Source of the DNA: Hevea brasiliensis
Taxonomy: Eukaryota; Streptophyta; Magnoliopsida; Malpighiales; Euphorbiaceae
Direction of reading: 5' to 3'
Assembly: GCF_030052815.1 (NCBI RefSeq)
Contig: NC_079507.1
Coordinates: forward strand, 54,757,571-54,821,570
Length of the DNA stretch: 64,000 bases
This document shows, piece after piece, positions 14,875 through 20,197 of this stretch (within the stretch, counting starts at the first letter, position 1; each line of letters starts with the position of its first letter). The position numbers were made by a program, and so were the translations under genes. The notes under the pieces are model-generated. The model was not told where the DNA came from, did not search any database, and saw only the letters and a list, made by a program, of their open reading frames with translations.

Positions 14875-16890
14875 ATGTCGAAATCGCTGGTAGATGTTCC
14901 TCCAATGGGTGGGTTCAGTTTCGATCTCTGTAGAAGAAATGATATGCTGGCAAAGAAGGGAGTTAACCCTCCCTCCTTTAGGAAAACAGGAACTACAATT
15001 GTTGGCATAGTTTTCCAGGTACGATAATGCTAAAACTGTATTTATATGTTAAGTATGTTAATTTCCATTTTTCTGTAGAATTTGGAGCTAAAACCCAGTT
15101 TGATACCTTGTTCTCGTTAATTTTACTTAGTCAAATTGATTGCTTTCTTAGTCTCCTAATCTACTGTGAGATGCATGAAGGGTTGGCAAAATCTGGAATT
15201 CATTTTGGGATTTTGACCTGTAGTTAATCCGTAGTGTGATTCAGTTCACCAATAAAGATTTTCAGTGCTGATATAAGGGTGAAGGAAACTTGATTAGATT
15301 GATTAATTTTTCTGGTTAATATATGTTGCAAGCCATAACGAGCCACTTTGAGTTGAGCATTGATAGGTTGCATCTTCTAGGCAAAGAATTAGTCTTCTTG
15401 TGCCATGCTGGGTTCTCACAAAATGTTGTCTCTAATCGTGTATTTTTGTTTCCCTTTTTTGGGAGGTTATAAACTTATTAAGTATTTTGGTATCTTTTGT
15501 ACATTTCTAAATAACACTAGTTGCATCAATGCTTGCATTTTAGGCTTTTAAAAACATAAATCCTAAAAGGAATAGGAAAAGAGAAAAAAAAATCCTAAAG
15601 AATGTAGAAAAGGGATCCTAAACAGCCTAGGAATAGGATTTGACTAAGTTTTCTGGGCTGTATATTGTTCCTGTGTCAGTGAGCTGGGGCAGAAAGGTTA
15701 TCATGTTATTCTTAATGGGTGTGGTGTATGTGTGTTACCATTTCTTGAGTTTTGGTGATTGCTATATTGGTTAGTGCATTTTCTGCTAAGCACTTGGCAT
15801 CTTTGCTTGGCTAAACCTTAGCCCAATGTTTCAAAAATTCTAACTTGTTTAGTTTATATATTTATTCTTTTGTCTACTTTATTCCATATAGGATGGTGTC
15901 ATTCTCGGAGCGGATACTAGAGCAACAGAGGGACCCATAGTTTGTGATAAGAATTGTGAAAAGATTCATTATATGGCACCAAAGTCCAGTGCAGAAAGGG
16001 CTACAAGTAGGAAGAATAAAAAGAAAAAGCAATTGCAGGAAAGTGTAAAAACAGAGCATGAACAGGAGATCAATGAACACAGCCCTCCAGCTGGAGGGAA
16101 TTTACAAGCTGGTGATATGAGGGTGAAAAGTGGAAAAAATAAAATAAAGAAGAAATTGTTGGAGGAAGCTTCTTTAAGCAAGGAAAGTAGTAAAAAATCT
16201 AATGGTGAGAGGAAAAAGAAAGTAAAGGAAACAAGAAGGCAATTATTACAGAAAACTGCTGAGGATGAAGAGGAAGATGTTAATACAGTGGGTTTTCCAC
16301 AGGAGGTGAATCCAGCAGCTGAAGGTGGAAAAATTGAAACTGCAAAAGGCAAGGAAGAAGAAGAGGTCATTGGAATAAATCCTATAGAAGAAGAGGATCC
16401 AAAATCCAATGTTGAAATGGTCAATAGGCTTAAAAAGAAGAAGAAGAAGAAAGAGCAGTTACTAAAGGAAGCTGCTAAGGCTGACAAGCGTGGTGTTTGC
16501 TACTTAAGTCAAATCCCTCCCCACATGGATCATGTAAAGCTTCGTCATATTCTTTCCCAATATGGAGAAATACAGAGGATCTACCTTGCACCTGAAGGTG
16601 ACCAATTGATAACTATTCAATTCTTAACTTTTTCTCTTATTCATCTTTCTGATTAGTCATATTAGCAAACCTCCTCAAGTTATGTGATAGTAAGCAGTTA
16701 ATCCATTAAAGAGAATGCATTGTTTTACTCTACAGATCCCACTGCTCGAGTAAATCGCAAAAGAGCTGGTGGATTTCGAGGTCAAGAATTCTCTGAAGGG
16801 TATGTTAAAAGGAAAAAATGCCGTTAAATTTATGCTAAACAATTTAACATAGCTTCATAGAATTAACAGTTAATATTCCTAGGATACTTT

Positions 16891-16934
<44 letters not shown>

Positions 16935-19900
16935 TTATAACCACCTACTTGACATTGTATCTTTGATTTTGTTTAACATAGAAAGATTGCATTAAATTGC
17001 TATTTAAGTAATCAGCTGATTCTCTTCGTCTGTAACCTGCAGGTGGGTTGAATTTACCAATAAGAGCATTGCAAAAAGGGTTGCTAATATGTTAAATGGT
17101 AAACAAATAGGTTGGTAATTAATTGCAATGATTTTTTTCCTATAAAATTTTGCATGCAATTTATATATAAGCTCCTCGGTGTTCTTATTTGTGTATATTT
17201 TGGACAACGGAGTAAGAATTAGCTTTCACGTAGAGAAACTAATAAAATCAAAATGCTTTCCTTGGTATTGAAAATTATATTTGAGCAAAATGCATGGGTC
17301 CCTTTTAACCTAGCTACTTGGCTTCAAATTCTTATTCTTTGTTTGGATTGTGGTTCCTTTTTCACTTTCATTTCTGTCTGTTGTTTGTGTTATTGCCCAA
17401 ATGAAGAATTAGGTTTGCTTAAGTATCTTATATATATATGCACATTTTTTTTTATATAGTCCATGTTTTTCTTGATGTCTTCCTCCTAATGTTTTATCAG
17501 AATATTGCGAAGTTTGTGTAGTTCCTATTAGCTGCATGTTTTTATCTGCTCATGTTTTCCTTTATTTATATATTAATTAATTTTTTCATGTTTAGGTGGC
17601 AGAAAGAGGTCACAATTCTATTATGACCTTTGGAATATCAAATACTTGAGTAAATTCAAGTGGGATGATCTTACAGAAGAAATTGGTAGAGAAGACATTT
17701 CTCGTTTGTCATATCATTATCACATAATTTTTTATAGTTTTCTGTATGTCTAAGTCCTGGTGTTTCTATTGCAGCATATAAGAGTGTTATACGGGAGCAG
17801 AAATTAGCTCTAGAAATTTCTGCTGCAAAGAGGGAGCGGGATTTCTATCTCAATAAGGTGGATCAATCTCGTGCTTTGAGTTCTATAGAAGAACGATTAA
17901 AAAAGGTAAATATTGTATAATTGTATACAATTTTGAGCTAGTTCAGGTTACTATTTTTTAGATTCCTTATAATTTTTCTAAAATACTAAACAGAACTGAG
18001 GTTCTTTGGCTAGGCATCTTTTGGTTTCCGCATCTTTTAAATTCTACACATGGACAACAGCATTTCAGCCCTTTATAGGAATGGTTTAAGTGTGTTTGGG
18101 TAGTGGAGCAACTTCTTCGTTAGTTTGGATGGAGTGGAGCAATTTCAGCCCTTCAATCATATATAGTTCTGATAGATGAGACGCGAGAATGAGTCAATAG
18201 AAAGTTAGAGTTTTGGAGAAGTACTCTAGAGTCAAAGGGCTTTAAGTTAAGTAGAACGAAAACAGAATATATGCACTGCAAGTTCAGTGAAGGCGGTGCC
18301 AATTGAGGATAAGTTGAAAGAAGGGAGATTGAGATGGTTCGGTCATGTGAAGCGTAGACATACAGAGGCTTCAGTTAGACAAGTAGAGCACATTAGGTTA
18401 GAGGATAGAAAGAAAAGAAGGGGTAGACCTAAACTGACTTAGAAGAAAGTAGTACAACATGATCTAGAAGCATTACACATTTCTCAGGATTTAACCAAAA
18501 ATCATTTAGAGTGGAGAAAGAGAATCCATATAGCCGACCCAAAATTTTTGGGATAAAGGATTAGTTGAGTTAAGTTGAGTTGTTGTTAGAAACCCCAACC
18601 ATAGGTTTTATATACATTATAGGTTTTATATGCATTAAGACCAATTGGGGAATCATGAAGGTACTAGAGCAAATAGTCTTACCTTGTTTTTGAAATGTTG
18701 GGTCTTCATGCTCTGAGATGCTTCATGGCTAGTTGTGTTATTTGGACACAGGTTAACAGCTCAGACATGCCAGCCCATGTATAAGACTGTTCTATGTGAA
18801 TGGAATTAATTATATCTGTGCAAAATGATCAACAAGTCTCTTCAATTAAATAGAAGAAACTGGAGAAGCAGGAATGAGGGAGGAAAGGATTATTGCCACA
18901 GGGGTGTGTTTTTGGGTGTATGTCTTTCTGTGTCAAGGTTTTGTGAATTGTCATTTTTAGGTCCCTGTTCTTTGTTGAATCTTTATCCCATGTTCAGTAT
19001 ATGTTAACATGGCATTAAGTGCACTCTTTGCTCTTACCTCAAGAGACCTTGCACGTAGCAATCACATAACAGAATGTTACAAAAAATTACCTTGCATATC
19101 ACATCAAATAGAACAGGTATCATAATGCATGCCTATATCTGATGGGTATTCTAGAAACTGAATTTCAGGAGGTGAAAAGTGAAAGTTCACTAGAGGCCAT
19201 GCCTTGAACGAAATGTAAATGCTACACACATGGCATTTGTGTACGTGTATGCCTTGCATATTAAGAGAAGAAAGTGGTCCAGACTCCAGAGAGAGAGTGT
19301 GCGAGTGTTCCTGACATTCAATTCAGTATTTGGTAATAGCTAATCTCTTTTTTTTTCTTCATCTTCTCTTTGTATAAGGAGAGCACTTTGACATAAACTT
19401 ATGCATGCAATGATCTATACCCAAATCCCCACTTACTGAAACCAGTCAAGGTAGACCTATGTTGTAATTGCTGTTTCTTATTTTGATATTGCAGCCCCTC
19501 GTCAAATTGTGTCATAATATCAAAAGAAATCCCACTTCTTTAAATGAATTTGTGAGAAAGTGAAGTAGATGCTGCAGCCTACTGCAGTAAACATTTAACA
19601 TATGAATGACTAAAAATTTCAAGCCACCTAGATCTCTTTTCCCCCTTGAAGCAGCCTATTTTATTACAAAGTAATGGATTCAGTGCGCACATCTTTTGTA
19701 CTCATTTTCAAGGTCAATGATTATGCTTTTTGCCCATTTATGGTTTTAGGACCACTTGTTTGGTAGAGAGAAAACTTGTAGATTTGAGGTAGTTCAATAT
19801 CTTTTTATGGCATAAAGGTTTTTTTTTTTTAATCAATTAATTCAGTGAATTTATTATTTATGGCATGAAGTTTTATTTTCACAGTCTCCTTTTTGTTGTC

Positions 19901-20197
19901 TACTGAGCATTTATTTTTATAGTGCATTTATGTTCCTGCATTATTGCTTCTGCAGAAACAAAAGGTCCAACAAGAGTCAGGAGGTCAACTCTCTGTTGGT
20001 GAGCAAGCACCGAAGGTCATCCGTCAATTCCCACAGACAAAACCAGTTGCAAATAAAGTGGAAGAAAGCAAATCTCAACTCTCAAAAGACATTCTGGCTG
20101 GGGTGAGTGAGTCATTATTTATAGGTATCAACTTCATATTACCTTATTCCTTACGCTCGGTTTGTGTTGTCCCATGCAGGTATTTGGTGTTTTATAG
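14875..20197 (+). CDS. Chimeric gene: proteasome beta2 (PBB) N-terminus fused in frame to ESF2/ABT1-like protein
   Basis: Eight exons: 14875-15018, 15892-16597, 16736-16799, 17043-17110, 17596-17685, 17775-17905, 19956-20102, 20180-20197. All introns are GT-AG and phases match, totalling 1368 nt (455 residues). Residues 1-78 are PBB: propeptide, then the mature start with catalytic Thr at residue 40, Asp17 (GADTRAT) and Lys33 (CEKIHYM). The PBB fold is cut after HYMAP. From residue 79 (KSSAER) the protein is ESF2: a Lys/Glu-rich region, an RRM-like domain from about residue 249 (GVCYLSQIPPHMDH), a conserved FYYDLWNIKYLSKFKW block, and a C-terminus ending SKDILAGVFGVL. ESF2/ABT1 proteins act in nucleolar 18S rRNA processing. 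The real exon 2 of PBB should continue into more proteasome sequence, so a beta2 subunit cannot be made. Whether the chimera is expressed is unknown. Confidence 0.82.
16894..16932. repeat. (CT)n(GT)n microsatellite in an intron of the chimera
   Basis: This is the same intronic array, inverted, as in the other ESF2 copies, with a different length. Confidence 0.95.
18150..18600 (+). mobile_element. RTE-type LINE 3' fragment in ESF2 intron
   Basis: It contains LINE 3' sequence (gggctttaagttaagtagaa; frame fragment similar to KLKEGRLRWFGHVKRRHTEA) with an internal deletion, and ends in ttgagttaagttgagttg. Equivalent fragments sit at the same intron in copies 3 and 4, so it was present before the ESF2 copies separated. 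Confidence 0.85.

What the first reader, a model, noticed from the sequence alone, without database searches (positions are those of the whole stretch)
14875..20197. In-frame proteasome beta2-ESF2 chimeric gene with all splice phases intact
Two unrelated housekeeping genes are joined inside an exon, and the frame is kept across the joint and seven introns (455 codons). The chimera keeps beta2 propeptide, Thr1, Asp17 and Lys33 but loses the rest of the fold, and carries nearly all of ESF2 including the RRM-like domain. It uses the PBB promoter. By chance only one in three such joints would be in frame, and decay would soon have broken it, so it is young or selected. It could place a nucleolar factor under proteasome-gene regulation or act as a dominant interfering form.
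Basis: partly seen in the sequence, partly recalled or inferred. Interest (0 to 1): 0.93.

Follow-up and report, generated by a model that had tools for sequence, protein, structure and literature searches.

The report
Young proteasome–ESF2 fused gene, rubber tree
In the rubber tree, a backwards copy of a ribosome-building gene (ESF2) sits inside a broken proteasome gene and continues its reading frame, giving an intact 455-codon fused gene that likely arose by a local copying accident a few million years ago and would make an ESF2 protein with a predicted inactive proteasome tail; whether the plant uses it is untested.

Summary
Eight exons with GT-AG introns give a 455-codon frame joining proteasome β2 (PBB) residues 1-78 to ESF2 without its first 18 residues. 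The window is Hevea brasiliensis DNA. The same chimera is already a Hevea gene model, P3X46_026342, differing at 3 of 455 residues, so an assembly artefact is unlikely.

PBB, a Rab2-like gene and ESF2 are neighbours here. The block 15979-22479 is an inverted copy of 34866-41482, carrying ESF2 and the last Rab2 exons. It replaces the middle of PBB, whose last two exons survive at 23454-24179. The joint lies in a CCA codon shared in frame by both parents. Intron divergence of 3.4% makes it young.

Selection evidence is mixed: exons changed less than introns, but amino-acid to silent changes (9:2) are neutral, and the chance of an intact neutral frame is 6-12%. No transcript data were available.

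A Euphorbia ESF2 model carries a proteasome α2 start instead, so such captures may recur.

Verdict: a real, young chimeric gene of a known kind; function unproven.

The parts
14875..15018 (+). Exon 1: PBB (20S proteasome beta2) start, propeptide and mature residues to Gln9
   Evidence: 87.5% identical to Rhodamnia PBB (P0121) residues 1-48
15892..15981 (+). PBB-derived 5' part of chimeric exon 2 (beta2 Asp10 to Pro39, with Asp17 and Lys33)
   Evidence: 100% identical to P0121 residues 49-78
15979..15981 (+). Joint: CCA codon shared by both parents in the same frame (PBB GCA-CCA, ESF2 TGT-CCA-AAG)
   Evidence: the joint beside copies 2, 3 and 4
15979..16597 (+). ESF2-derived part of chimeric exon 2
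16736..16799 (+). ESF2 exon (RRM region)
17043..17110 (+). ESF2 exon (RRM region; E325K in this sequence, not in P0001)
17596..17685 (+). ESF2 exon
17775..17905 (+). ESF2 exon (long helix; A362V)
19956..20102 (+). ESF2 exon
20180..20197 (+). ESF2 last exon and stop
15979..22479 (+). Whole inserted block: inverted copy of 34866-41482 (ESF2 copy 2, last Rab2 exons, LINE-like sequence)
   Evidence: alignments of 4386 bp at 96.2%, 1073 bp at 94.1% and 1092 bp at 93.5%, in order, opposite strand
20909..21614 (-). Orphan last two exons of the Rab2-like gene carried by the block (21614-21540, 21001-20909)
22480..22490 (.). Short filler of about 11 bases at the right joint, matching neither neighbour
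22490..23152 (+). AT-rich stretch, direct copy of 27082-27720 (spacer between PBB and Rab2)
   Evidence: 89.4% over 670 bp
23454..23541 (+). Surviving penultimate PBB exon, open and with splice sites
24103..24179 (+). Surviving last PBB exon, ends ..EGNDAMEE and stop
27932..36477 (+). Rab2-like GTPase gene, neighbour of PBB (exons from 27932, 28074, 33989, 34476, 35741, 36385)
37265..41536 (-). ESF2 copy 2, complete, source of the block; its protein equals the Hevea ESF2 entry P0003 (398 of 398)
59224..63533 (-). ESF2 copy 3, complete; counterpart of P3X46_026348 (5 of 408 residues differ)
8041..9807 (-). ESF2 copy 4, truncated, with frameshifts and stops (decayed)

Best explanation
An inverted copy of the neighbouring ESF2 gene sits inside a proteasome beta2 (PBB) gene of Hevea and continues its frame in one exon, a fusion likely made by a single template-switch or end-joining accident that would be transcribed from the PBB promoter and is predicted to yield an ESF2 paralogue with a disordered, inactive beta2 tail. 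Shown: the block 15979-22479 copies 34866-41482 in reverse; it carries orphan Rab2 exons, which fixes the direction of copying; PBB keeps exon 1, part of exon 2 and its last two exons; the joint shares CCA in frame; the frame is intact in two Hevea sequences. Inferred: the copying mechanism, PBB-promoter transcription, translation, and nucleolar action of the ESF2 part. On present evidence it is a young, near-neutral duplicate, more likely redundant with ESF2 copies 2 and 3 than a new regulator. It is very unlikely to be a working proteasome subunit, because most of the beta2 fold is missing.
For: Inverted block and its extent; orphan Rab2 exons inside it beside a contiguous Rab2 gene at the source; PBB 3' exons downstream on the same strand; CCA shared at the left joint and about 11 bp of filler at the right; gene model and seven introns; same chimera annotated in Hevea with 3 residue differences; intron divergence 3.4%; residues 1-5 and 7-76 under pLDDT 50 with no secondary structure, while the blocks from 221 to 280 average 87-95; private changes 9 N to 2 S in the chimera, 10:3 in copy 2, 5:2 in copy 3, neutral expectation 80% N; R255Q (R in 116 of 117 homologues) and A362V (A in 117 of 117) in both Hevea versions, E325K (E in 107 of 116) in this one; three of seven derived changes fall on the 106 of 378 conserved columns, close to the 2 expected by chance.
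Against: Coding sites of the chimera changed less than its introns (11 of 1137 against 67 of 3044, p 0.007), and amino-acid changes are fewer than the intron rate predicts (9 against 20.0, p 0.005), which hints at some constraint; copy 3 shows the same and copy 2 does not. Neutral chance of an intact frame is only 6-12%. Departures such as R255Q are not unusual in number: the median homologue departs at 2 conserved columns. A Euphorbia lathyris ESF2 model also begins with a proteasome piece, of alpha2, which is odd if such fusions are pure accident. The structure model used an alignment that mixes ESF2 and PBB rows, so low confidence in the tail is weak evidence. Expression was not tested.
Confidence: 0.7

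Rival explanations
1. A selected new gene: the fusion keeps a working ESF2 and likely places it under the proteasome-gene promoter, so that ribosome assembly would rise with proteasome demand.
For: Intact frame and splice sites with a 6-12% neutral chance; exon changes below the intron rate; shared by two Hevea sequences; a second proteasome-ESF2 model, with alpha2, in Euphorbia lathyris; plant proteasome genes are co-induced by NAC53/78, and the putative NAC78 site is TGGGC (PMC6568242, passages).
Against: N:S is neutral; changes fall on conserved sites about as often as chance; one TGGGC at 14554 where about 0.4 is expected; the Euphorbia model is a predicted isoform X2 whose alpha2 part lacks short stretches of the intact subunit; no expression data.
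Confidence: 0.15
2. Dominant interfering protein: the beta2 propeptide and Thr1 region would bind proteasome assembly intermediates, or the tailed ESF2 would block pre-ribosomes.
For: Propeptide, Thr1, Asp17 and Lys33 are retained.
Against: Only 39 mature beta2 residues remain; the tail is predicted disordered; a strongly harmful allele should not be found in two Hevea sequences.
Confidence: 0.03
3. Silent young duplicate: the locus is not transcribed or its mRNA is removed, and the frame is open only because it is recent.
For: Youth; neutral N:S; a nearby duplicate already decayed (copy 4).
Against: PBB start and upstream sequence appear undisturbed; P3X46 annotators predicted a gene, but their evidence was not seen.
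Confidence: 0.1
4. Assembly artefact joining two loci.
For: The window is rich in near-identical repeats.
Against: A differing Hevea sequence carries the same 455-residue chimera; no N in the window; PBB exons flank the block on both sides in order.
Confidence: 0.02

Closest known systems
Young plant fusion genes formed after duplication of a parental gene (Oryza survey, PMC9199173; abstract and one Results section seen)
   Same: A duplicated copy of one gene is joined to another to give one open frame; the survey reports 310 such genes in four Oryza species, more than 44% expressed.
   Different: Here the joint is inside an exon, the copy is inverted and local, it destroyed this copy of PBB, and the source gene and the orphan neighbour exons that show the direction are both visible in one 64-kb window.
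Euphorbia lathyris ESF2 isoform X2 (P0011)
   Same: An ESF2 protein whose N-terminus is replaced by the start of a 20S proteasome subunit, in the same plant family.
   Different: The piece is from subunit alpha2, about 60 residues and with short stretches missing; only a predicted protein was seen, not the DNA, so it may be a gene-model artefact.
ESF2/ABT1 family of SSU-processome factors (yeast Esf2, human ABT1; PMC9977310, passages)
   Same: RRM, lysine-rich N-terminal arm and C-terminal helix are retained; 94% identical to Hevea ESF2 over the shared part.
   Different: First 18 residues replaced by 78 proteasome residues (the last one, Pro, shared); changes at nearly invariant positions 255 and 362.
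20S proteasome beta2 subunit (PBB1/PBB2)
   Same: Upstream side, start codon, propeptide and first 39 mature residues.
   Different: Residues 79 onward are absent from the frame, so no Ntn-hydrolase fold; the surviving last two exons lie beyond the ESF2 stop.
Annotated PBB fusion models such as PBB-Rab2 in Prunus dulcis (P0164) and Parasponia (P0145)
   Same: PBB sequence in one gene model with another gene; 9 of the 120 listed proteins, P0001 included, carry a Pfam domain foreign to PBB.
   Different: Those I read join PBB to a Rab2-like sequence, probably as annotation read-through of neighbours; this one is a joint in the DNA itself.

Membership tests
Young chimeric (fusion) gene | Two unrelated parental coding sequences in one open frame | tested here: met
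Young chimeric (fusion) gene | Parental copies identifiable | tested here: inconclusive
   ESF2 parent met: copy 2 at 37265-41536. Intact PBB parent not seen: the window has only this one and the genome search did not complete
Young chimeric (fusion) gene | Absent from relatives | tested here: inconclusive
   Only P0001 joins PF00227 to ESF2 among the 120 listed of 1439 hits and the 120 listed of 1564; lists are capped and show cluster representatives. P0011 of Euphorbia joins the alpha signature PF10584 to ESF2
Young chimeric (fusion) gene | Transcribed | not testable with these tools
   no RNA reads on hand
ESF2/ABT1 | Family RRM and flanking helices | tested here: met
   PF00076 above cut-off; PF00076 and PF27577 listed for P0001; model
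ESF2/ABT1 | Binds pre-rRNA and stimulates the Dbp8 helicase | not testable with these tools
   known for yeast Esf2 (PMC9977310, passages)
Proteasome beta2 subunit | Complete Ntn-hydrolase domain | tested here: not met
   Profile positions 2-45 of 189 only; frame leaves PBB after residue 78
Proteasome beta2 subunit | Thr1, Asp17, Lys33 | tested here: met
   sequence and alignment to spinach beta2; numbering recalled
Retrogene chimera | Intronless copy | tested here: not met
   The six introns of the ESF2 part are retained, 96% identity to copy 2 over exons and introns

The most novel reading that the evidence does not exclude
The fusion is a functional new gene of Hevea: an ESF2 isoform driven by a proteasome promoter that couples ribosome assembly to proteasome stress, born in one local inverted-copy event that also removed a beta2 proteasome gene; with the alpha2-ESF2 model of Euphorbia lathyris it would be one of two separate captures of ESF2 by proteasome genes in the spurge family.
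Probability: 0.12. Interest if true: 0.8.

Novelty: new member of a known kind. Interest (0 to 1): 0.47.

Why it matters
It shows a chimeric gene soon after birth, with source gene, orphan neighbour exons, both joints and the broken host gene all in one window, so the route from local rearrangement to a new open frame can be read directly. If it is expressed, rubber tree would offer a natural test of whether promoter capture by a housekeeping gene is used or merely tolerated; a second proteasome-ESF2 model in Euphorbia makes that test more pointed.

Tried and rejected
Rejected: retrocopy (introns kept); read-through gene model (joint is in DNA, inside an exon); A27C damage in the β2 part (C is native in plant PBB, for example P0121 and P0132); decayed PBB tail (the odd residues before GHKEYL are intron).

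Led nowhere: the own-genome search did not complete, so a second intact PBB in Hevea could not be sought. The PBB homologue list shows cluster representatives, so Hevea PBB proteins other than P0001 do not appear in it. No chain named ESF2 or ABT1 was among the hits of the PDB comparison. The TGGGC box search was uninformative. Paper searches for Hevea chimeric genes, ESF2 with gene fusion, template switching, Hevea β2 and the locus tag listed nothing that I recognised as being on this locus (listings only). The AT-rich 22490-23152 stretch could be a second template switch or a repeat; not resolved. With copy 4 included, three informative sites favour two different groupings (2 and 1), so the order of copies is unresolved. 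The α2 piece of P0011 has no counterpart in the window that I could tell from ESF2 matches.

Because of P0011 I moved the best explanation from 0.72 to 0.70, the selected-gene rival from 0.13 to 0.15, the novel case from 0.10 to 0.12 (interest if true 0.75 to 0.80) and interest from 0.42 to 0.47.
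Full report
WHAT IS THERE. Exons at 14875-15018, 15892-16597, 16736-16799, 17043-17110, 17596-17685, 17775-17905, 19956-20102 and 20180-20197 splice with GT-AG ends into one frame of 455 residues. Residues 1-78 are proteasome β2 (PBB): 87.5% identical to Rhodamnia PBB over exon 1 and 100% over the PBB part of exon 2, with Pfam Proteasome and spinach 20S β2 as matches. The rest is ESF2, with an RRM.

WHOSE IT IS. The chimera matches a Hevea brasiliensis entry, P3X46_026342, over its full length, with three differences: residues 139, 147 and 325. 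Copy 2 of ESF2 in the window encodes exactly the Hevea ESF2 entry P0003 (0 of 398 differ), and copy 3 differs from P3X46_026348 at 5 of 408. So the window and the database entries are different Hevea sequences that share the chimera; I take this as strong evidence against an assembly error. The evidence behind the database gene model was not seen.

HOW IT WAS MADE. Self-comparison shows 15979-22479 as an inverted copy of 34866-41482, in three collinear pieces at 93.5-96.2% identity. The source segment lies at the 3' end of a Rab2-like gene whose six exons run in order from 27932 to 36477, followed by ESF2 copy 2 in the opposite orientation. The copy inside PBB carries only the last two Rab2 exons, so the source is the 34.9-41.5 kb side. 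PBB continues beyond the block: its last two exons, at 23454-23541 and 24103-24179, are open and splice to GHKEYLRNHILPNPRTYISSRGYTFPKKTEVLLTKITPLKDKEEVTEGNDAMEE. PBB residues 79 to about 219 were not found in the window. At the left joint both parents have a CCA codon in the same frame; the right joint has about 11 bases matching neither side, followed by a direct copy of spacer 27082-27720. Short shared bases and filler fit template switching or end joining; that step is inferred.

NEIGHBOURS ELSEWHERE. PBB and a small GTPase domain appear in one gene model in 4 of the 120 listed proteins (P0127, P0145, P0164, P0174); the two I read, P0145 and P0164, are PBB followed by a Rab2-like sequence. 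Locus tags place ESF2 and PBB close together in Corymbia (BT93_B0489 and B0491) and Erythroxylum (K2173_014240 and 014236). Against a general rule: in Euphorbia lathyris the listed ESF2 (P0011) and PBB (P0132) lie on contigs of different length, as do those of Rhodamnia (P0097, P0121). The order PBB, Rab2, ESF2 is therefore probably old but not kept everywhere; this rests on tags, contig lengths and fused models, not on fetched DNA.

A SECOND CASE. Of the 120 proteins listed, four carry a Pfam domain foreign to ESF2: P0001 (β2), P0008 (PF01280, Nyssa), P0035 (PF13359, Camellia) and P0011, an ESF2 isoform X2 of Euphorbia lathyris with PF10584, the proteasome alpha signature (family name recalled). 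P0011 begins with about 60 residues of 20S α2 (spinach α2, 5.6e-24, with short stretches missing). It is the only listed protein (120 of 416) with the ESF2 domain PF27577. It is a predicted isoform and its DNA was not seen. Two proteasome starts on ESF2 in one family could be coincidence, gene-model error or a hint that strong housekeeping promoters are captured repeatedly.

AGE. Intron divergence is K 0.034 to copy 2 and 0.040 to copy 3; at recalled rates of 2.5e-9 to 7e-9 per site per year that is about 2.5 to 8 million years. The split of the copies may predate the fusion.

SELECTION. Results point both ways. Against constraint: private changes are 9 amino-acid and 2 silent in the chimera, 10 and 3 in copy 2, and 5 and 2 in copy 3, none differing from the neutral proportion of 80% (copy 3's count includes a lost stop, and two of the chimera's nine, at residues 96 and 109, look ancestral rather than derived). 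In both Hevea versions the chimera departs at R255 (R in 116 of 117 homologues) and A362 (A in 117 of 117), and the window also at E325 (E in 107 of 116) (P0002 and P0003 left out of the 119). Three of seven derived changes on 106 of 378 conserved columns is what chance gives (p 0.31); the seven (127, 147, 163, 255, 325, 362, 454) were polarised by eye, and 147 is uncertain. Position 255 lies in the first RRM strand (RNP2-like; recalled). But the median homologue also departs at two such columns. For constraint: private coding changes are 0.97% against 2.20% in introns (p 0.007), and amino-acid changes are 9 against 20.0 expected from the intron rate (p 0.005); copy 3 behaves alike and copy 2 does not. 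Neutral survival of the frame is estimated at 6-12%, using intron rates for the whole branch and one to three private intron indels. With few changes and possible exchange between copies, I read this as undecided, leaning near-neutral.

WHAT IT WOULD DO. The AlphaFold2 model has residues 1-5 and 7-76 under pLDDT 50 and without secondary structure, while the RRM region is largely confident and the long helix 350-408 fairly so (mean pLDDT 62, pTM 0.40). The alignment mixed 50 ESF2 rows with eight PBB rows, which may itself lower confidence in the tail. Only 39 mature β2 residues remain, so self-cleavage at Thr1 and entry into a 20S particle are very unlikely (inference). The likely product is ESF2 with an inert tail. 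Yeast Esf2 binds the 5' ETS and U3 and stimulates Dbp8 through its C-terminal domain (PMC9977310, passages), a region the chimera keeps. Tomato and Arabidopsis have two β2 genes (PMC5289967, passages), so loss of one PBB is tolerable in principle; whether Hevea has another intact one was not tested. Plant proteasome genes respond to NAC53/78, and the putative NAC78 site is TGGGC (PMC6568242, passages); the chimera's upstream 575 bases hold one such box at 14554, which chance explains.

PLACE AMONG KNOWN THINGS. Young fusion genes after duplication are well known in plants: 310 in four Oryza species, over 44% expressed (PMC9199173, abstract and the section on origination patterns). This is one more, unusually complete in its record of origin. 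The searches listed no paper that I recognised as being on it; the locus tag itself had no hit.

Noticed in passing
P0011 (Euphorbia lathyris, protein only): An ESF2 isoform X2 begins with about 60 residues of proteasome subunit alpha2, a second proteasome-ESF2 joint in the spurge family.
   Followed up: partly
34476-34680 (+): The Rab2-like gene has TAG where relatives (P0145, P0164) have the second Glu of NVEE, at the end of its fourth coding exon, so this GTPase copy may itself be broken in this sequence.
   Followed up: partly
3646-3933 (+): A second, partial copy of the first two Rab2 exons with an in-frame stop, in a left-hand stretch that also holds LINE-like pieces and decayed ESF2 copy 4.
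   Followed up: partly
41691 (5' flank of ESF2 copy 2): Copies 3 and 4 share further upstream sequence, but copy 2 switches about 155 bases before its ATG to sequence repeated at 51442-54175; the annotated ESF2 gene may have lost its original promoter.
   Followed up: partly
41691-44406 and 51442-54175: Direct duplication of 2.7 kb at 95.8% identity; content not identified.
   Followed up: no
10490-12359 and 44829-47287: Further direct duplication in pieces of 94-98% identity.
   Followed up: no
59221-59226 (-): Copy 3 has lost the stop codon used by copies 1 and 2 (stop to Trp); P3X46_026348 likewise ends ..FGGLW.
   Followed up: partly
22490-23152 and 27082-27720: AT-rich direct repeat, one copy inside the PBB remnant and one just before Rab2; may be a second template switch or a mobile element.
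   Followed up: partly
12700-13260: Tandem-like repeats containing GGAGGAGAGTTCTTA-type units, seen while reading the sequence.
   Followed up: no
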